DNA of 48,135 bases from Chryseobacterium gleum (GTDB lineage Bacteria; Bacteroidota; Bacteroidia; Flavobacteriales; Schleiferiaceae): positions 1-48,135 of the forward strand of contig CAMCXO010000021.1 of NCBI GenBank assembly GCA_945883565.1. The letters run 5' to 3'. Numbering within the stretch: position 1 is the stretch's first letter; the number at the start of each line of letters is the position of its first letter. Under the pieces are notes generated by a model. The model made no database searches. It was not told the origin of the DNA and saw nothing but the letters and a program-made list of their open reading frames with translations. The position numbers were made by a program, and so were the translations under genes. Positions 22,817 through 29,977 of the stretch are shown here, piece by piece.

Positions 22817-23656
22817 CTACTTAATTAAAAAAGGTCCTTTTGTAAGGGCTTGATTTGAGCTCACATTAATAGGTGCCAATGCCCATTTGATGAATATAGG
22901 AAGCACAATGCCATAGGTTTCCATGGTGTGACGACCACCATGTAGTTCAAAATAATGAAGATCTGAACCAAGCTTAAAGCCATGATTAATTAGTTCTTTA
23001 ACTAAATCACGGGCATCGTCTAGGCTGTCAATAATTCCATTTAGATTTCGATCAGCCGTTTCGTCGAGCGTTCCAACTTGAATCCAAATGCGCAACCTTG
23101 GCTTGGCGGGGGCTTTTTGAACGACTTGATGAATAATTCGATCGGCATCTGTATAACCCATCATAAGGTCTTTGCTCCTCCACCAAAATGAAGGGGAAGC
23201 TGCCATGACAGTTGAAAAATGCTGCGGGTGGTGCCAAGCAATATCAAAGGCAGATAAACCGCCCAAGCTAAAGCCTCCTATTATATGTTCGCTAAACCCA
23301 TGAACCCGAATTTGTTTTTTTAAAAAAGGCAAGCATTCGTCAACAATGAATCGACTGTATTTCCAAGCCAACCCCCCCCGACCTTTATAGTCTGGTAGTC
23401 CTGCAACACCGTAAGTATCCATTCGTTTGTAGGCATGTACGGCCGCTACAACGAAAGGAACACAATGTCCATCGCGCCATAGTTCAAACAGAGTTCTACC
23501 GAGTTCAATCGCTTCCATATCCTGCCCATCGTTGAGCAAAACCAATGGGTAAAATTGATTTAAATCGAAATCTACAGGATGAAAAACATCGACCCGCATG
23601 GGGGCCCCAAGCGATTTTGAGAGGATTTCGAATGTGCGTTGATAAATTTTTTTCAT
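22817..23656 (-). CDS. Esterase-family alpha/beta hydrolase
   Basis: A 279-residue protein of the putative-esterase (esterase D/enterochelin-esterase-like) group, without a signal peptide. The nucleophile elbow is G-F-S-L-G-G (about residues 148-153); the acid is probably in Q-V-G-T-L-D-E and the histidine in H-G-G-R-H-T-M-E-T-Y. Family-like segments are PLVLLNDGQDMEA near the N-terminus and SPSFWW after the elbow. The substrate is unknown. It is divergent, 101 bases away, from the esterase that leads the ligase operon, and could belong to the same pathway; that link is inference. Confidence 0.88.
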   Translation of the reverse strand: MKKIYQRTFEILSKSLGAPMRVDVFHPVDFDLNQFYPLVLLNDGQDMEAIELGRTLFELWRDGHCVPFVVAAVHAYKRMDTYGVAGLPDYKGRGGLAWKYSRFIVDECLPFLKKQIRVHGFSEHIIGGFSLGGLSAFDIAWHHPQHFSTVMAASPSFWWRSKDLMMGYTDADRIIHQVVQKAPAKPRLRIWIQVGTLDETADRNLNGIIDSLDDARDLVKELINHGFKLGSDLHYFELHGGRHTMETYGIVLPIFIKWALAPINVSSNQALTKGPFLIK

Positions 23657-23757
23657 GAATGGGCAATATTAGTTCATGCAGAATTGAAATAGTGAAAAGT
23701 TTATTTACATATTTGGACTATTGTTAACTGTACACTAACCTAAGCGTAATATTCAAT

Positions 23758-24462
23758 ATGCATCAAGCCTACCATAAATGGTATTCGCCCTCTTTGTCGA
23801 TGGAAATGCAAATGTTGGTTTTTGGCGAGAGAGGCCTACCCATCATTCTCTTCCCAACTTCTATGGGAAAACACAACGAAAACCGCGATTTTAAGCTTAT
23901 AGATTCAGTAGCCTGGTTTGTAGAAAATGGCTTCGTAAAAATTTATTGCCCCGATGGCATCGACGAATTGAGCTGGTATAACACCGCTATTCACCCCGCT
24001 ACCAGAGCCTACAACCATACTTGTTATGATCGCTTTTTACATGAAGAATTGGTACCTCAAATGAAACGAGATACCGGTTTTGATAGAATTGGAGTTGCAG
24101 GATGCAGTTTTGGAGGCTATCATGCAGCCAATTACGCCTTTAAACATCCCGAAAATGTAAGCAATCTAATGACTATGGGTGCGGCATTCGACATTAGGCG
24201 AAGAGTGGAAGGTTATTACGATGACAATGTTTATTTCAATAATCCGGTCGATTATTTACAAGGGGCTGAAGAGCCGGCACTTTGGAATATGAAAATAGTA
24301 TTGGGTACCACCGAAGACGACTTTTGCAAGCCTTCCAATCTCGATTTAAGCCGAATACTTGCCCACAAAGGCATTGACCATTGGCTTGATATAAGGCCCT
24401 ATGGAGCCCACGACTGGCCAATTTGGCGAGAAATGTTTCCTCACTATCTGTCTTTACGGTAA
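23758..24462 (+). CDS. Esterase-family hydrolase, first gene of the ligase cluster
   Basis: A 234-residue cytoplasmic alpha/beta hydrolase. The nucleophile elbow reads G-C-S-F-G-G (about 119-124); a second motif, G-A-H-D-W-P-I-W near the C-terminus, provides the likely histidine, with an acidic residue in LGTTEDD as the likely acid. The start MHQAYHKWYSPSLSMEMQMLVFGERG is typical of the small esterases seen beside ligase clusters, as far as I recall. It precedes the ATP-grasp gene by 29 bases and is the first of five same-strand genes with very short gaps. A role in removing or transferring an acyl group on the pathway product is plausible but unproven. Confidence 0.85.
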   Translation: MHQAYHKWYSPSLSMEMQMLVFGERGLPIILFPTSMGKHNENRDFKLIDSVAWFVENGFVKIYCPDGIDELSWYNTAIHPATRAYNHTCYDRFLHEELVPQMKRDTGFDRIGVAGCSFGGYHAANYAFKHPENVSNLMTMGAAFDIRRRVEGYYDDNVYFNNPVDYLQGAEEPALWNMKIVLGTTEDDFCKPSNLDLSRILAHKGIDHWLDIRPYGAHDWPIWREMFPHYLSLR

Positions 24463-24491
24463 AAACAAACAATTAAAAACCAATCCTAGCA

Positions 24492-25526
24492 ATGAAGAAA
24501 ATTGGAATACTTCACGGTCGCGAAAACACTTTCCCACAGGCCTTTGTAGAAGAAATCAACAGCCGTGGCCTCGAAAACTTGATGGCTGAACCCGTTAAAA
24601 TTGATAAGCTTTCTCAAGCATCAGACAGCGGTTATGCTGTAATTGTTGATCGCATTTCGCAAGATGTGCCTTTTTATCGGGCGTATTTAAAGAATGCTGC
24701 TTTAATGGGTACTGCGGTTATTAACAATCCATTTTGGTGGAGTGCTGATGAAAAATTCTTCAACAATTGTTTGGCGATTAGGCTTGGTGTCCCGGTTCCA
24801 AAAACCTATCTGCTGCCTAGCTACGAACGGCCGGATGATACTACAGACCAGTCTTTTCGTAATATGGCCATGCCCCTCGATTGGGAAACCATGCAGAATG
24901 AAATCGGATTTCCAGCTTATATGAAACCACATTCCGGTGGCGGTTGGAAAAGTGTGTACAAAGTCACTGATGCTAATGATCTTTTTGAAAAACATGCTGA
25001 AACAGGTCAGTTGGTTATGATGATGCAAGAAGAAATTGTTTTCGATGAGTACTTTAGAGTGTATTGCATAGGAGGTAAACATGTTCGAATTATGCCTTAC
25101 GAACCACGTAATCCTCACCACTTGCGTTATGTTGTTAACCGTGAACCAGCCACAGATGCCATGTTAAAATTGGTGGAGGCCCATACCCTAACCTTATGTC
25201 AAGCACTTGGTTACGATTTTAATACCGTTGAGTTTGCCGTGCGTGATGGGATTCCTTATGCTATTGATTTTTGTAACCCGGCTCCCGATGCTGATGTTCA
25301 TTCAGTGGGTGAAGAAAACTTCAAATGGGTAGTGAAAACGGCTGCCGATTACGCGATTGAGAGGGCTTTGGCTCATCAACCCGGAGAGGATAACCTAACA
25401 TGGGGTACTTACATTCAAAAGGCCGCTTCTAAATCGAATGTTCAAGCTGAAAGTCAATTAACAGAAACCAAACCTTCGGCCAGAAAAGTAAGTGCTTCGA
25501 AAAGCACAGGAAAAGGTAATAAATAA
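24492..25526 (+). CDS. ATP-grasp ligase-like protein (RimK-related)
   Basis: ATP-grasp enzymes join a carboxylate to an amine through an acyl-phosphate. In this 344-residue protein the ATP-binding lysine and glycine loop are in Y-M-K-P-H-S-G-G-G-W-K-S (142-154, Lys145), the hinge region is V-M-M-M-Q-E-E-I (175-182), and the metal-binding end is A-I-D-F-C-N-P-A-P-D-A-D (257-268). A pre-ATP-grasp domain fills about residues 1-90. The last 30 residues are Lys/Ser/Thr-rich and look disordered, an unusual tail. It lies 27 bases before the GCS2 ligase. The substrate pair is unknown. Confidence 0.88.
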   Translation: MKKIGILHGRENTFPQAFVEEINSRGLENLMAEPVKIDKLSQASDSGYAVIVDRISQDVPFYRAYLKNAALMGTAVINNPFWWSADEKFFNNCLAIRLGVPVPKTYLLPSYERPDDTTDQSFRNMAMPLDWETMQNEIGFPAYMKPHSGGGWKSVYKVTDANDLFEKHAETGQLVMMMQEEIVFDEYFRVYCIGGKHVRIMPYEPRNPHHLRYVVNREPATDAMLKLVEAHTLTLCQALGYDFNTVEFAVRDGIPYAIDFCNPAPDADVHSVGEENFKWVVKTAADYAIERALAHQPGEDNLTWGTYIQKAASKSNVQAESQLTETKPSARKVSASKSTGKGNK

Positions 25527-25553
25527 ACATCTAGATCTTTAAACAGCAGCCAA

Positions 25554-26660
25554 ATGGATACCAGAATGTTTACCTTGGGCATAGAAGAAGAGTATATGGT
25601 TCTCGACCCTACAACCCGTGAACTGTGCTCTCACGAACAAAAAATAGTAGAGATAGCTTCCAGAATATTGGATGAAGATCAGGTAAAGGCTGAAATGCAT
25701 CAAGCGGTAGTAGAGGCGGGTACGCCAATATCGGCCAATACAGACGAAGCGAGAATCAACCTCATGCTTTTGCGCTCTACTTTGGGCCAGGTTGCCGGAG
25801 AACTGGGTTTTAGAATTGCGGCCAGCGGTACCCATCCTTTTAGTCATTGGACCACTCAGCTTATAACCGATAATCCACGTTACCACCAAATTGTGATGGA
25901 AATGCAGGAAGCGGCAAGGTCGAATTTGATTTTTGGACTGCATGTTCATGTGGGTATGCCCAACAAGCGTATTGCGATGCATATAGCCAACTCCATGCGC
26001 TATTTCTTGCCTCACGTTTTTGCCCTGTCAACCAATTCTCCCTTTTGGGAAGGTCGCGATACAGGCTTTAAGTCTTTTCGGTGTAAGGTGTTCGATAAAT
26101 TTCCGAGAACCGGTATTCCAGAGTTTTTTAACAGTTGGGAAGAATACGAGAGTTATGTTAAACTGCTGATTAGAACGGGTTGTATAGACAATGCCAAAAA
26201 AATTTGGTGGGATTTACGTGTTCATCCGTTTTATGATACAGTAGAATTTCGAATTTGTGATGTGCCGATGTTGATTGATGAAACAATTTGCATAGCAGCT
26301 ATTTTTCAAGCCCTCTGCGCTAAGTTGTATAAATTAAGGGAAATGAATGTTGAATTCATTCCTTATAAACGATCATTGATAGCAGAAAACAAATGGCGTG
26401 CTTCCAGGTATGGCATAGATGGCAATCTTATTGATTTTGGTAAAGAATCGGAAGTGCCAACAAGAGAGCTTATATACGAACTGCTCGATTTTATTGATGA
26501 TGTTGTAGACGAATTGGGATCTCGTAATGACATAAACTATGTGCATAAAATTCTTGAAAATGGAACCGGTGCAGATCGGCAATTAAAGGTATTTTATGCC
26601 AATAAGAATCCAATAGAATTGGTAGATTTCATAATCCATTCCAGTATGTTAGGTTTGTAG
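25554..26660 (+). CDS. Carboxylate-amine ligase, GCS2/YbdK-like
   Basis: The 368-residue protein belongs to the glutamate-cysteine ligase type 2 family (COG2170-like), which forms amide bonds with ATP on the glutamine-synthetase fold. Signature segments: T-L-G-I-E-E-E-Y-M-V-L-D near the N-terminus, E-M-H-Q-A-V-V-E-A-G-T, A-A-S-G-T-H-P-F, F-G-L-H-V-H-V-G-M-P and W-W-D-L-R-V-H-P-F-Y-D-T-V-E-F-R-I-C-D. True glutathione synthesis is possible but not suggested by the neighbours, since no recognisable glutathione synthetase is present. The gene sits one base before the next start codon, inside the five-gene cluster. Confidence 0.92.
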   Translation: MDTRMFTLGIEEEYMVLDPTTRELCSHEQKIVEIASRILDEDQVKAEMHQAVVEAGTPISANTDEARINLMLLRSTLGQVAGELGFRIAASGTHPFSHWTTQLITDNPRYHQIVMEMQEAARSNLIFGLHVHVGMPNKRIAMHIANSMRYFLPHVFALSTNSPFWEGRDTGFKSFRCKVFDKFPRTGIPEFFNSWEEYESYVKLLIRTGCIDNAKKIWWDLRVHPFYDTVEFRICDVPMLIDETICIAAIFQALCAKLYKLREMNVEFIPYKRSLIAENKWRASRYGIDGNLIDFGKESEVPTRELIYELLDFIDDVVDELGSRNDINYVHKILENGTGADRQLKVFYANKNPIELVDFIIHSSMLGL

Positions 26661-26661
26661 A

Positions 26662-27486
26662 ATGCAACTGAAAGTCGCTATTCTTGATATGTATAAAGGG
26701 GCCCCCAATCAGGGGATGCGTAATATTCATGAAATTCTAAACCGATATTCCTCCGAAAATCAAATTGAATTAGAAAGGGCAGTTTTTGATGTTCGGGGTA
26801 AAGGTGAAATTCCAAGCTTGGAGTTTCATGCCTTCATTTCGAGTGGTGGTCCCGGAAATCCAATTGAACAGGAAGGTTGGGAGGCAGAATGGAAAAAATG
26901 GATGTCTGATGTTATGGCTTTTAATCAAGAAGAGCGGGTTTATAAGCGCTACGTTTTTTTGATTTGTCACTCTTTCCAGCTTATGTGCCATCACTTTCAG
27001 CTAGCACACGTATCTAAACGACGTACTGAGTCTTTTGGTGTATTTCCTATACATCCCACTTCGGCAGGTAAAAAAAACCGATTTACCGGCCAATTACCGG
27101 ATCCGTTTTGGGGTGTTGATTCGCGTTTTTATCAGGTAGTTAAGCCCGATGCGTACGCCATGAATAGGATGGGTGCTCAAATTTTGGCCATTGAAAAAGA
27201 CCGACCCAATGTGCCTTTAGAAAGGGCCACCATGGCCATACAGTTTACGCCTCAAATTGTGGGCACCCAGTTTCATCCGGAGGCAGATGCTGATGGTTTT
27301 CTTTACTTTTTGCAGGACGAAGACAAAAAGAAAGTGATAATTGAGAATCATGGGTTGCGCAAGTACAACAACATGATTGGGCATTTAAAAGATCCCGATA
27401 AAATTCATCTCACTCAAAGAAAAATGATTCCGGTTTTTTTAGATGAAGTCGTTCATAGCCATTACAACCATTTTGCCAGCGCATGA
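26662..27486 (+). CDS. Class I glutamine-amidotransferase-like protein
   Basis: A 274-residue protein of the GATase1 fold. The candidate triad is Cys102 in F-L-I-C-H-S-F-Q, His205 and Glu207 in G-T-Q-F-H-P-E. An early S-S-G-G-P-G-N-P (60-67) is the usual oxyanion-side loop. The nucleophile elbow differs from the common G-x-C-x-G-x-Q: both glycines are replaced (Leu100 and Ser104). It may still hydrolyse glutamine to feed ammonia to a partner ligase, or act as a gamma-glutamyl hydrolase or peptidase. It overlaps the last cluster gene by four bases (ATGA). Confidence 0.87.
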   Translation: MQLKVAILDMYKGAPNQGMRNIHEILNRYSSENQIELERAVFDVRGKGEIPSLEFHAFISSGGPGNPIEQEGWEAEWKKWMSDVMAFNQEERVYKRYVFLICHSFQLMCHHFQLAHVSKRRTESFGVFPIHPTSAGKKNRFTGQLPDPFWGVDSRFYQVVKPDAYAMNRMGAQILAIEKDRPNVPLERATMAIQFTPQIVGTQFHPEADADGFLYFLQDEDKKKVIIENHGLRKYNNMIGHLKDPDKIHLTQRKMIPVFLDEVVHSHYNHFASA

Positions 27487-28673
27487 TACCAGAAATCAGA
27501 AAACGCTTTAATGAACAATACACTGAAAAGCAATACGCTGAATTAAAGCACTTTTTAAATGAATCGTGCGGTGTAACCGTTGATTTTAGAATAGCTGAAA
27601 CCCCGGTTTTTATACCTAAAGATTTAGAGTTGAAGGTGATAAAAGCCTGTGATGATGTAATTAGTGTTTTAAAACGACCCGATTTTATGTCCCTAACAGA
27701 AAGGGCCATGCCAGCTCATTACAATTTACCGAATCAGAATACCCATCCCCATTTTTTTTGCCTCGATTTTGGAATTTGTCGAGATAAAGAAGGGCAATTG
27801 GAGCCACAACTTATAGAAATGCAGGCATTTGCTTCGATGTTTTGTTGGATGAATGTTTTGGGGAAAGGATATCGCAAACACTTTAATTTTCCGGAAGGCT
27901 TTACCCACTATTTGAATGGTTTTGATGAGAACTCTTACCTCAATCTCTTAAAAAGAACCATTGTGGGCAATGAAGACCCTAAGCACGTTATATTGTTAGA
28001 AGTTTTACCTCATCAACAAGCTACCCGGGTAGATTTTTATCTAACCCGTCAAGCATTGGGTATCGAGATTGTATGTTTAAGTGAATTGGTACAAGATGGA
28101 AGGCAACTTTTTTATTTAAAAAATGGTGAACGCATTCAAGTAAAGCGTATTTATAACCGTGTAATTTTCGACGACTTAGAGAGACAAACCGATTTTAAAT
28201 ACTCAGTTAATCTCCAAAGTGATTTGGAAGTAACCTGGGTGGCACACCCGAATTGGTTCTACAGATTGAGCAAGTTTACCATGCCCTATTTAGATAGCCC
28301 CTTTGTGCCAAGCACGTATTTTTTAAATACCTTGAGTAAGGTTCCTGATGATTTAGAGGAATATGTTTTAAAGCCCTTATTTAGTTTTTCAGGTAAAGGG
28401 GTAGTGATTGATGTTCAAAAATCCGATATAGAGGCCATTAGCGATCCGGAAAACTGGATTCTTCAAAAAAAAGTGGCATATGCCGAAGCCATACAGTCGC
28501 CTGAAGGAGGGGTAAAATTCGAATTGAGGATGATGTATTTCTGGCCGGATAATGCTGAACAACCGACATTGGCCATGAGTTTGGGGCGATTAAGCCGAGG
28601 CAAAATGATTGGGGTTCAATACAACAAAAACCTTAATTGGGTTGGAAGTACAGCGCCATTTTATATGGTTTAA
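27483..28673 (+). CDS. Uncharacterised protein, possibly a divergent ATP-grasp
   Basis: I do not recognise this 396-residue family with certainty. The C-terminal third looks like an ATP-binding module: Y-V-L-K-P-L-F-S-F-S-G-K-G-V-V-I-D (a lysine before a Ser/Gly loop), W-I-L-Q-K-K-V, then K-F-E-L-R-M-M-Y-F. This order recalls the ATP-grasp fold and, more loosely, circularly permuted ATP-grasps such as glutathionylspermidine synthase. The N-terminal half has H-P-H-F-F-C-L-D-F-G-I and Q-L-I-E-M-Q-A-F-A. No signal peptide or membrane helix is seen. The four-base overlap with the amidotransferase-like gene argues for a shared pathway or complex. Confidence 0.6.
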   Translation: MIPEIRKRFNEQYTEKQYAELKHFLNESCGVTVDFRIAETPVFIPKDLELKVIKACDDVISVLKRPDFMSLTERAMPAHYNLPNQNTHPHFFCLDFGICRDKEGQLEPQLIEMQAFASMFCWMNVLGKGYRKHFNFPEGFTHYLNGFDENSYLNLLKRTIVGNEDPKHVILLEVLPHQQATRVDFYLTRQALGIEIVCLSELVQDGRQLFYLKNGERIQVKRIYNRVIFDDLERQTDFKYSVNLQSDLEVTWVAHPNWFYRLSKFTMPYLDSPFVPSTYFLNTLSKVPDDLEEYVLKPLFSFSGKGVVIDVQKSDIEAISDPENWILQKKVAYAEAIQSPEGGVKFELRMMYFWPDNAEQPTLAMSLGRLSRGKMIGVQYNKNLNWVGSTAPFYMV

Positions 28674-28699
28674 AGGCCTACTTCACCACTTTATCTTTG
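28669..28699 (+). promoter_or_regulatory. Probable promoter for the membrane metallophosphatase gene
   Basis: TTTA at 28669-28672 is followed after 19 bases by TATCTTTG at 28692-28699, an exact -7 match at ideal spacing. The ATG is at 28745. The -33 half overlaps the stop codon of the last ligase-cluster gene, which suggests that the cluster ends here and a new unit begins. Confidence 0.6.
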
Positions 28700-28744: not shown

Positions 28745-29977
28745 ATGGTATTGCGCATTCTGGTTGTTTTGGCCCTTTTACTGGCCATTGACATTTACGG
28801 GTTTTCGGCTATTCGTTTATTAACCAAGTCGTTTTGGCCATGGCGAGCTCTTTGGTGGGGCTTGTCGTTGGTAGTTGCTTTTGCCACTGTTTATGTTTTA
28901 ATAAGTTTAGGAAGCGCAAACAGGGCCCGCCCTTCCGGTCCTATGATGTATGTTATGGGGCTTTTTATTCTGGTTTATGTTCCTAAAATGTTGCTCCTTT
29001 TTCCTTTAATGGTGGAAGATCTGGCGCGAATTTCCTCGGCCATAATCAATTGGACCTTTGGAAATGACAAAAGAGAATGGGTTTATCCGGAGCGCAGAAA
29101 GTTTGTGAGCACCCTAGCCCTTGGATTGGCAGCCATTCCTTTTGCTTCTATTCTACACGGCATTTGGAAAGGTCGGTATAGATTCAGAGTCATTAAACAA
29201 GAGTTGTATTATGATGACTTACCTGCCGCCTTTGATGGGTTTGGATTTGTGCAAATCTCAGATTTACATGTAGGCAGTTTTGATCAAGCCGAAAAAGTAG
29301 CTTATGGCATAGAATTGATTAACCGATTAAAGCCTGAATACATTTTTTTTACCGGCGATATGGTGAATAACAGCAGCGAGGAGTTGACGCCTTGGAAGGC
29401 ATTGCTCACGAAGCTTCAAGCCGAAAAAGGTAAGTTTTCGGTGTTAGGCAATCACGATTATGGCGATTATGTGCCATGGCCCTCTGCCGAAGCTAAACGG
29501 CAAAACCTGGAAGTTTTAAAGCAGCACCAAGCTGAAATGGGGTTTCAAATGCTTCACAATCAGTGGCACCGAATAGAAAAAGGGGGGGAGTCGATTTATC
29601 TGGCAGGGGTTGAAAACTGGGGAAAACCACCATTTCCACAGTTTGGCGATTTAAAGAAAGCTCTGGATAACATTCCTGATGAGGCCTTTACCATCTTGTT
29701 AAGTCACGACCCCAGCCATTTTGATGAGCAGGTGAAGCAACATCCTAAAAAGGTTCATTTAACCCTAAGCGGACATACGCATGGCATGCAGTTCGGTATT
29801 GAAATACCCGGTTGGGTGAAATGGAGTCCGGTTAAGTGGCGTTATCCAAAGTGGGCTGGCTTGTATGAAGAAATGGGCAAAAGGCTTTATGTGAATCGTG
29901 GCTTTGGCTATTTGGCCTTTCCCGGAAGGGTGGGCATATGGCCGGAAATCACTTACTTTATTTTAAAAAAGGGCTAA
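28745..29977 (+). CDS. Membrane-anchored metallophosphoesterase (YaeI-like)
   Basis: The 410-residue protein has three or four N-terminal membrane helices (about 2-22, 31-52, 65-90, 120-140) and then a calcineurin-like domain (from about 155). Metal motifs in order: S-D-L-H-V-G-S, F-T-G-D-M-V-N-N, L-G-N-H-D-Y-G-D, S-H-D-P-S-H-F and S-G-H-T-H-G-M-Q. The last helix is preceded by E-R-R-K-F-V, which looks like a twin-arginine motif kept inside a multi-helix anchor. Relatives include YaeI/YkuE-type phosphodiesterases. The substrate is unknown. It has its own promoter and converges on the dehydrogenase at 30013. Confidence 0.9.
   Translation: MVLRILVVLALLLAIDIYGFSAIRLLTKSFWPWRALWWGLSLVVAFATVYVLISLGSANRARPSGPMMYVMGLFILVYVPKMLLLFPLMVEDLARISSAIINWTFGNDKREWVYPERRKFVSTLALGLAAIPFASILHGIWKGRYRFRVIKQELYYDDLPAAFDGFGFVQISDLHVGSFDQAEKVAYGIELINRLKPEYIFFTGDMVNNSSEELTPWKALLTKLQAEKGKFSVLGNHDYGDYVPWPSAEAKRQNLEVLKQHQAEMGFQMLHNQWHRIEKGGESIYLAGVENWGKPPFPQFGDLKKALDNIPDEAFTILLSHDPSHFDEQVKQHPKKVHLTLSGHTHGMQFGIEIPGWVKWSPVKWRYPKWAGLYEEMGKRLYVNRGFGYLAFPGRVGIWPEITYFILKKG

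What the first reader, a model, noticed from the sequence alone, without database searches (positions are those of the whole stretch)
23758..28673. Five-gene amide-ligase cluster with unknown product
One esterase, an ATP-grasp ligase, a GCS2-type ligase, a class I amidotransferase-like protein and a possible second ATP-grasp protein are packed head to tail with gaps of 29, 27 and 1 bases and a final 4-base overlap. Two or three independent amide-forming enzymes plus an amidotransferase-like protein and a hydrolase suggest assembly of a short peptide-like or amidated metabolite. Related mixtures of ATP-grasp, COG2170 and amidotransferase genes have been noted in comparative genomics of amidoligases, as far as I recall, but I know of no characterised product for this set. 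A promoter at the far end (28669-28699) marks the boundary.
Basis: partly seen in the sequence, partly recalled or inferred. Interest (0 to 1): 0.8.

Follow-up and report, generated by a model that had tools for sequence, protein, structure and literature searches.

The report
Conserved three-ligase peptide pathway, product unknown
Six packed bacterial genes, three of them for enzymes that join small molecules through amide bonds, recur together across many Bacteroidota and appear to make a small peptide-like substance that we could not identify.

Summary
A divergent esterase at 22817-23656 belongs with them. The last gene (g5) is a third amide ligase: its model has the fold of YgiC, glutathionylspermidine synthetase and eukaryotic glutathione synthetase (Z 23.9-25.6). 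g2 has the RimK/LysX fold; g3 is a YbdK-type GCS2 ligase; g4 keeps the class-I amidotransferase triad.

In 296 Bacteroidota genomes the three ligases co-occur strongly (83 genomes, 60 genera, 25 families), including 24 genomes where no two of them lie within 6 kb. In a g5 tree five tested genera are each one clade. Where g5 is missing, another circularly permuted ATP-grasp ligase follows g2 (10 of 10 loci examined). In three genomes without g4 an M29 aminopeptidase sits between g3 and g5.

Best reading: an NRPS-independent pathway making a short gamma-glutamyl-type isopeptide or peptide-amine conjugate, trimmed or recycled by g4 and the esterases. Order of steps, substrates and product are inferred or unknown. 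Bacillithiol-replacement and cyanophycin readings were weakened by tests. Our paper searches found no description; the 2009 amidoligase survey was not held.

The parts
   Evidence: PF00756 87.9 bits; divergent next to g1/g2 in 24 of the 34 g5-derived loci that also hold g3; 5 of the other 10 are cut off upstream by the contig end, 5 show no g0 hit
23657..23757 (.). 101-base divergent intergenic region between g0 and g1, likely regulatory
   Evidence: read; no exact TAnnTTTG box, one-mismatch boxes at 23708 (+) and at 23664 and 23735 (-); one 22-codon open frame at 23659-23727 (+), not tested for conservation
23758..24462 (+). g1: alpha/beta hydrolase of the PF00756/Abhydrolase_1 kind, Ser117-Asp188-His218 invariant
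   Evidence: invariance 18 of 18
24492..25526 (+). g2: RimK/LysX-type ATP-grasp ligase with a low-complexity, low-confidence C-terminal tail (residues 314-344)
   Evidence: TIGR00768 2.2e-7 under its cut-off; model pLDDT 81, RimK Z 20.6 over 263 residues, rmsd 3.0; K145, E180, D259, N262 invariant in 27 of 27
25554..26660 (+). g3: GCS2 carboxylate-amine ligase, YbdK/COG2170 kind
   Evidence: PF04107 207 bits; PRK13515 516 bits over cut-off 371; YbdK structure 1r8g E 1.6e-61 by profile
26662..27486 (+). g4: class-I glutamine-amidotransferase-like hydrolase, Cys102-His205-Glu207
   Evidence: PF00117 just over cut-off; 30 of 30 aligned homologues match at E<=0.1; triad invariant 30 of 30
27483..28673 (+). 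g5: circularly permuted ATP-grasp ligase with the YgiC / glutathionylspermidine synthetase / eukaryotic glutathione synthetase fold; no Pfam or NCBIfam match above cut-off
   Evidence: model pLDDT 92; YgiC Z 25.6 (342 residues, rmsd 3.5), E. coli GspS Z 24.0, human GSS Z 23.9; PF03738 GSP_synth hit by 9 of 48 aligned homologues at E<=0.1, best 0.0018
28692..28699 (+). possible Bacteroidota-type -7 promoter box (TATCTTTG) for the next gene (metallophosphoesterase, 28745-29977); likely downstream boundary of the unit
   Evidence: consensus recalled; such boxes are not enriched in the window

Best explanation
The six genes encode an NRPS-independent pathway for a small, gamma-glutamyl-type isopeptide or peptide-amine conjugate that serves general metabolism in many Bacteroidota. 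Three ligases act in series: g3 (GCS2) joins a glutamate-type carboxylate to an amine or amino acid; g2 (RimK-type ATP-grasp) adds an amino acid; g5 (glutathionylspermidine/glutathione-synthetase-type ATP-grasp) caps the C-terminus with a last amino acid or a polyamine-like amine. g4 is more likely a gamma-glutamyl or peptide hydrolase than an ammonia donor, and g0/g1 hydrolyse an ester or amide of an intermediate or the product, so synthesis and turnover are encoded together. Shown: gene content, predicted folds of g2 and g5, intact conserved residues in g1, g2, g4 and g5, co-occurrence, clean genus clades of g5 in five genera. Inferred: order of steps, substrates, the hydrolytic role of g4, the physiological role, the product.
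For: g5 fold and g2 fold; conserved residues. Genus-level co-occurrence in 140 genera: g2 and g5 both in 64, g2 only 14, g5 only 0, neither 62 (p 2e-26); g3 and g5 60/8/4/68 (relatedness not corrected). 24 of 83 genomes keep g2, g3 and g5 although no two start within 6 kb; in single-contig G080 they lie at 0.48, 0.74 and 1.23 Mb. In 10 of 10 loci examined from the 15 genomes with g2 and g4 but without g5, another circularly permuted ATP-grasp ligase (c5) follows g2, in 9 of them directly between g2 and g4; in the tenth (G327) g4 is on another contig. Peptidase context: M29 aminopeptidase between g3 and g5 in three genomes that lack g4 (G308, G092, G292); M42-type peptidase directly before g4, same strand, in 17 of the 84 g5-derived loci; M17 nearby in three loci of two genera. 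All five tested genera are single clades in the g5 tree. The closest structures to g5, YgiC and YjfC, are described as peptidylpolyamine synthetases with peptide-spermidine ligase activity (text and cited title in PMC12568646, passages read).
Against: No substrate or product evidence exists. g3 is missing from four f19 genomes that keep g2, g4 and g5, and g4 is missing from 33 of 83 genomes (all 24 of the unlinked ones), so no single fixed route can apply to all. The M42 link may be mere synteny: its named carriers are Chitinophagaceae or unclassified Bacteroidetes bins, plus one labelled Sphingobacterium. Co-occurrence statistics treat related genera as independent, and several 'unlinked' genomes are fragmented assemblies. 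The window's own g5 does not follow its order in the tree. A linear order of steps is a guess.
Confidence: 0.5

Rival explanations
1. Glutamine-dependent C-terminal amidation: g4 releases ammonia from glutamine and the overlapping g5 uses it to cap a dipeptide made by g3/g2, giving an amidated peptide solute that works like the NAGGN osmoprotectant; M42/M29 peptidases recycle it.
For: g4 and g5 overlap by 4 bases in the window; g4 is present in 73 of 84 g5-derived loci; g4 has the complete class-I amidotransferase triad; one M42 neighbour (L087) has a weak match to the NAGGN-system peptidase model (37 bits, cut-off 397.75).
Against: 36 of 91 genomes with g5 lack g4; three such genomes carry a peptidase between g3 and g5, which fits a hydrolase better than an ammonia donor; the M42 match is far under its cut-off. 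The other NAGGN genes were not searched for.
Confidence: 0.2
2. Low-molecular-weight thiol: g3 makes gamma-glutamylcysteine and g5 completes a glutathione analogue; g0/g1 are S-acyl-thiol hydrolases.
For: GCS2 plus a glutathione-synthetase fold; weak match of g0 to S-formylglutathione hydrolase (TIGR02821, 0.0016, under cut-off).
Against: The bacillithiol-pathway family BshC is present in 35 of 36 g5-positive and 17 of 17 g5-negative genomes tested (genomes chosen by me), so these cells probably make another thiol; three ligases are one more than a glutathione-type tripeptide needs.
Confidence: 0.1
3. Specialised metabolite such as a pseudotripeptide protease inhibitor (E-64 or dapdiamide logic: stand-alone amide ligases).
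For: g5's fold also matches the E-64 ligase Cp1B (Z 23.1); relatives of the alternative ligase c5 lie in small clusters on plasmids, for example Selenomonas pSRC2 with a GCS-family ligase and an alpha/beta hydrolase.
Against: g2, g3 and g5 are nearly always single-copy, spread over 25 families, form genus clades in five genera, persist when unlinked, and g2 and g5 gave no hit among plasmids; no further gene family recurs in more than 18 of 85 or 6 of 63 loci, c5 apart.
Confidence: 0.12
4. Graspetide/RiPP or protein-tagging system: g2 (R2K/RimK-like) or g5 modifies a ribosomal peptide or protein.
For: g2's structural relatives include graspetide ligases and RimK; 17 of 27 g2 homologues touch the R2K_2 model at E<=0.1, best 0.0011; R2K ligases are proposed protein modifiers (PMC4431377, passages read). 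A 22-codon open frame lies in the divergent region (23659-23727).
Against: No room for a precursor inside the operon: gaps of 29, 27, 1 and -4 bases. Among 29 loci with g2-g5 in one block, small frames in the gaps that resemble each other were seen only between two Mucilaginibacter loci in the 25 of 36 pairs shown.
Confidence: 0.06
5. Cyanophycin or isoaspartyl nitrogen-storage metabolism.
For: In genus g24 (L009, L171) the five genes lie next to cyanophycin synthetase, cyanophycinase and isoaspartyl peptidase; the window's genome has a cyanophycin synthetase elsewhere.
Against: Cyanophycin synthetase over cut-off in 8 of 36 g5-positive and 2 of 17 g5-negative genomes (Fisher p 0.31): no clear association in this small, chosen sample.
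Confidence: 0.02

Closest known systems
YgiC/YjfC and glutathionylspermidine synthetase (GspS), circularly permuted ATP-grasp peptide-polyamine ligases
   Same: g5 has their whole fold (Z 24.0-25.6) and about the size of YgiC; conserved E-x-Q (Mg-ligand position, by recalled analogy with E-x-N) and a Lys-Pro ATP-site motif
   Different: 14% identity in the aligned YgiC row; PF03738 not matched by the window's g5; set beside GCS2 and RimK-type ligases; no amidase domain
Eukaryotic-type glutathione synthetase plus gamma-glutamylcysteine ligase pathway
   Same: a GCS2 ligase and a glutathione-synthetase-fold ligase in one operon
   Different: a third ligase, an amidotransferase-like hydrolase and two esterases; carriers tested also hold BshC (35 of 36)
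YbdK family carboxylate-amine ligase (PRK13515, COG2170)
   Same: g3 scores 516 bits over the cut-off of 371
   Different: no physiological product of that family is known to me (recalled); here it has recurrent partners
RimK / LysX / ArgX ATP-grasp ligases
   Same: g2 fold, Z 20.6 over 263 residues, rmsd 3.0
   Different: 12-19% identity in the RimK/LysX/ArgX rows, TIGR00768 below cut-off, R2K_2 only weak
NAGGN osmoprotectant system (amidotransferase, ATP-grasp ligase, M42 peptidase; plan recalled)
   Same: works on a similar plan: ligase, amidotransferase-like protein and, in 17 loci, an M42-type peptidase side by side
   Different: amidotransferase of another class (recalled), M42 match far under the NAGGN model's cut-off; other NAGGN genes not searched
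Amidoligase gene neighbourhoods of Iyer, Aravind and colleagues (2008 pupylation paper read in passages; 2009 survey recalled, not held)
   Same: GCS2-sized ligases of the same superfamily next to glutamine-amidotransferase-like thiol peptidases were predicted there to make glutathione or related peptide metabolites (PMC2588565)
   Different: a different ligase family; the set here, with a GspS-type ligase, was not in the passages read

Membership tests
GCS2 / YbdK carboxylate-amine ligase | family model score over curated cut-off | tested here: met
   PRK13515 516.3 (cut-off 371), TIGR02050 300.4 (176.4), PF04107 207.1 (21)
GCS2 / YbdK carboxylate-amine ligase | gamma-glutamyl:amine ligase activity | not testable with these tools
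   needs enzyme assay
Glutathionylspermidine synthetase / YgiC (PF03738) | sequence family score over cut-off | tested here: not met
   the window's g5 has no PF03738 match at E<=0.1; 9 of 48 homologues match at E<=0.1, best 0.0018
Glutathionylspermidine synthetase / YgiC (PF03738) | fold | tested here: met
   Z 25.6 YgiC (rmsd 3.5, 342 residues), 24.0 GspS; below this superfamily group the list falls to Z 12.7 and then 7.8
Glutathionylspermidine synthetase / YgiC (PF03738) | polyamine as amine substrate | not testable with these tools
   needs enzyme assay
RimK/LysX ATP-grasp ligases | TIGR00768 over cut-off | tested here: not met
   30.5 bits, cut-off 143.4
RimK/LysX ATP-grasp ligases | fold and ATP/Mg residues | tested here: met
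   Z 20.6, rmsd 3.0, 263 residues; K145, E180, D259, N262 invariant in 27 of 27; roles of these residues by recalled analogy
Class-I glutamine amidotransferase-like | Cys-His-Glu triad and family score | tested here: met
   30 of 30 keep C102, H205, E207; PF00117 23.4 bits against 22.8, 30 of 30 homologues match at E<=0.1
Class-I glutamine amidotransferase-like | glutamine hydrolysis feeding a synthetase | not testable with these tools
   g4 absent from 36 of 91 g5 genomes, which makes it doubtful
Graspetide / RiPP cluster | precursor peptide gene next to the ATP-grasp ligase | tested here: inconclusive
   none inside the operon (gaps 29, 27, 1, -4 bases); one 22-codon frame in the divergent region was not tested for conservation
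NAGGN osmoprotectant system | M42 peptidase of TIGR03106 over cut-off | tested here: not met
   the one M42 neighbour scanned (L087) scores 37 bits against 397.75
Glutathione/LMW-thiol pathway | replaces the other known thiol of the phylum | tested here: not met
   BshC in 35 of 36 g5-positive and 17 of 17 g5-negative genomes
Cyanophycin metabolism | cyanophycin synthetase co-occurs with the set | tested here: not met
   8 of 36 g5-positive against 2 of 17 g5-negative genomes, Fisher p 0.31
Anti-phage defence system | match to a PADLOC model | tested here: not met
   0 hits at E<=0.01 for g0-g5, c5 and c7 (library of 2023)

The most novel reading that the evidence does not exclude
An undescribed small peptidyl-amine (for example a gamma-glutamyl dipeptide capped with a polyamine) is a standing metabolite or cofactor across much of Bacteroidota, made by the GCS2 + RimK-type + GspS-type ligase trio and turned over by the co-encoded hydrolases: a bacterial counterpart of glutathionylspermidine or trypanothione with its own biosynthetic route.
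Probability: 0.25. Interest if true: 0.8.

Novelty: new variant of a known kind. Interest (0 to 1): 0.56.

Why it matters
A set of three different amide ligases that is nearly always single-copy and is kept together genome-wide in 60 of 140 sampled genera (25 families) of one phylum, even where the genes have drifted apart, points to a metabolite that matters to these cells. No Pfam or NCBIfam model claims the window's g2 or g5 above its cut-off. Named carriers with culture-collection strains (Pedobacter caeni DSM 16990 and Mucilaginibacter gilvus with g0-g5, Chitinophaga filiformis DSM 527 with g1-g5) make the question 'what small molecule is this?' directly testable by gene deletion and untargeted LC-MS. 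Ligases this far from known ones could also be useful amide-forming biocatalysts.

Tried and rejected
Cyanophycin/isoaspartyl storage: suggested by L009, then weakened, because cyanophycin synthetase is not clearly tied to g5 (8 of 36 against 2 of 17, p 0.31). Isoaspartyl peptidase as a steady partner: in 6 of 63 fetched stretches; in 39 genomes searched it lies near the set in 5 (G005, G017, G029, G051, G109), all known to me beforehand.

Thiol replacement: weakened by BshC being nearly universal in the 53 genomes tested. Graspetide: no precursor inside the operon; not fully excluded. Defence: no PADLOC hit. Plasmid-borne accessory cluster: no hit for g2 or g5. g3 relatives on Paracoccus plasmids (41% and 38% identity): in the two regions read no other ligase or amidotransferase is annotated; one has an alpha/beta hydrolase nearby. 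A Na+/solute symporter reading into g5 (G162; in G305 the symporter lies in two overlapping ORFs, the second of which holds g5) looked like a transporter clue, but the other loci inspected have different upstream genes. Profile comparison of g5 with its replacement c5 gave no credible alignment (probability 1.6%), so common descent of the two beyond the shared class is not shown.

Literature: the listings (capped lists of titles and abstract starts; one search found none) showed no paper that describes this set; the 2009 amidoligase survey is not held, so prior mention there cannot be excluded.

Full report
THE OBSERVATION. The five ORFs lie at 23758-24462, 24492-25526, 25554-26660, 26662-27486 and 27483-28673 on the + strand, with gaps of 29, 27 and 1 bases and a 4-base overlap. 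I call them g1 to g5. A sixth gene, g0 (22817-23656, - strand), is divergent from g1 across 101 bases and is a PF00756 esterase.

WHAT EACH GENE IS. g1: alpha/beta hydrolase; Ser117, Asp188 and His218 invariant in 18 of 18 aligned homologues. g2: RimK-family match under the cut-off; predicted model pLDDT 81, nearest structures RimK (Z 20.6, 263 residues, rmsd 3.0), LysX and ArgX; residues 314-344 are low confidence. g3: GCS2, over the PRK13515, TIGR02050 and PF04107 cut-offs, profile match to YbdK 1r8g at 1.6e-61. g4: class-I amidotransferase-like, Cys102-His205-Glu207 kept in 30 of 30. g5: no family above cut-off; model pLDDT 92; nearest structures YgiC Z 25.6 (342 residues, rmsd 3.5), E. coli glutathionylspermidine synthetase Z 24.0, human glutathione synthetase Z 23.9, with a fall to 12.7 and then 7.8 below that group; Foldseek agrees (24 chains at E up to 0.001, all of this kind). 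Sequence supports this weakly: 9 of 48 homologues touch PF03738 and 10 of 48 PF14403 at E<=0.1.

CONSERVATION. In 40 genomes (the window's own and 39 relatives) g5 occurs in 6. Two of four other genomes of the same genus (G002, G004) have all six genes in the same layout; G029, of another family, has g1-g5 in the same order at 41-63% identity; in G005 and G017 only g4-g5 lie at the g5 locus.

GENOME-WIDE CO-OCCURRENCE. In 296 Bacteroidota genomes at least 90% complete, after dropping weak hits, g2 is in 107, g3 in 102, g4 in 70 and g5 in 91; 83 hold g2, g3 and g5 (60 genera, 25 families). By genus, of 140: g2/g5 both 64, g2 only 14, g5 only 0, neither 62; g2/g3 64/14/4/58; g3/g5 60/8/4/68. Fisher p values (2e-26 for g2/g5) ignore relatedness. 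Of the 83 genomes, 26 have g1-g5 in one block and 24 have no two of g2, g3 and g5 starting within 6 kb. All 24 lack g4; in 6 of them, all family f38, g2 and g3 are 10-26 kb apart; others are far apart or on different contigs, some of them short. Single-contig G080 has them at 0.48, 0.74 and 1.23 Mb. Where I fetched the surroundings of all three genes (G080, G138, G312, G316) no partner lies in the fetched stretches. Of 50 genomes with g2, g3, g4 and g5, 30 have these four in one block and 20 do not.

REPLACEMENTS. Fifteen genomes have g2 and g4 but no g5. In 10 of these 15 I fetched the locus: in all 10 another ligase (c5; 452-483 aa in the seven called as ORFs; one member scanned, PF14403 CP_ATPgrasp_2 8e-7, below cut-off) follows g2, and in 9 it lies directly between g2 and g4; in the tenth (G327) g4 is on another contig. 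In 4 of the 10 a PF00756-type esterase (c8; one member scanned) follows g4. c5 as a profile matches a putative glutathionylspermidine synthase structure, 3n6x, at 9e-9. In G308, G092 and G292, all without g4, an M29 aminopeptidase (one member scanned) lies between g3 and g5. Other neighbours in 63 loci: a further ATP-grasp (c7) in 5, M17 peptidase in 3, isoaspartyl peptidase in 6. In 17 of the 84 g5-derived loci an M42-type peptidase (L087 scanned) lies directly before g4 on the same strand, gap 0-150 bases.

INHERITANCE. In a g5 tree of 34 rows, Chitinophaga, Pedobacter, Sediminibacterium, Mucilaginibacter and Ferruginibacter are each one clade (5 changes, the least possible; 0 of 200 shuffles as low). 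The window and L007 group with Sphingobacteriaceae and not with other genera of their own family or order; this hints at transfer of the cluster into this genus, but the support is 87 and long branches were flagged.

MECHANISM. The best reading is a serial ligation by g3, g2 and g5, with hydrolysis by g4, g0 and g1. That g4 acts as a hydrolase is inferred from its absence in 36 of 91 g5 genomes and from a peptidase between g3 and g5 in three of these. That g5 may use an amine such as a polyamine is inferred from the activity stated for YgiC/YjfC in PMC12568646 (passages). The order of steps and the product are not shown.

TESTS OF RIVALS. BshC is in 35 of 36 g5-positive and 17 of 17 g5-negative genomes: a replacement for bacillithiol is unlikely. 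Cyanophycin synthetase is in 8 of 36 and 2 of 17: no clear link. No precursor gene fits inside the operon; among 29 loci with g2-g5 in one block, look-alike small frames in the gaps were seen only between two Mucilaginibacter loci in the 25 of 36 pairs shown, and a 22-codon frame in the window's divergent region was not tested further. No PADLOC match. The NAGGN peptidase model is not reached by the one M42 neighbour scanned.

LITERATURE. Passages read: PMC2588565 (predicts peptide metabolites for GCS2-sized ligases of the same superfamily next to amidotransferase-like peptidases), PMC2922099, PMC4431377, PMC8939145, PMC12568646. No listing or 97 showed a paper on this set, and one search found no paper at all.

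VERDICT. Novelty: a new variant of a known kind (NRPS-independent amide-ligase pathway), of unusual breadth and unknown product.

Noticed in passing
G162 (L196:2613-5240) and G305 (L197): A Na+/solute-symporter-like ORF (named by eye) runs in frame into g5 with no stop in G162; in G305 the symporter lies in two overlapping ORFs, the second running into g5. Fusion or loss of a stop in one genus.
   Followed up: partly
L009:7785-12465 and L171: Cyanophycin synthetase, cyanophycinase and isoaspartyl peptidase genes lie right beside the five-gene cluster in genus g24; the window's own genome has a cyanophycin synthetase at G000:C1:18733-21321.
   Followed up: yes
window:25431-25526: g2 ends in a Lys/Ala/Ser-rich low-complexity tail, present with varying length in several homologues and short or absent in others.
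   Followed up: no
L195:3957-10687 (Selenomonas ruminantium pSRC2): A plasmid stretch with a glutamate-cysteine ligase family protein, a MATE exporter, a c5-like ligase and an alpha/beta hydrolase, resembling the chromosomal set in another phylum.
   Followed up: no
window:22817-28673: The window genus's g5 groups with Sphingobacteriaceae rather than its own order, suggesting that the cluster may have been transferred as a unit.
   Followed up: partly
L043: A MAG labelled Williamsia (an actinomycete) carries a Bacteroidota-type g5, probably a mislabelled or mixed bin.
   Followed up: no
G150, G123, G241, G174, G327: g2 copies with one in-frame stop inside the matched range, in genomes that otherwise hold parts of the set; not examined (sequencing error, match running past the gene end, or decay).
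   Followed up: no
window:23659-23727: A 22-codon open frame in the divergent region between g0 and g1; chance is the default reading.
   Followed up: no
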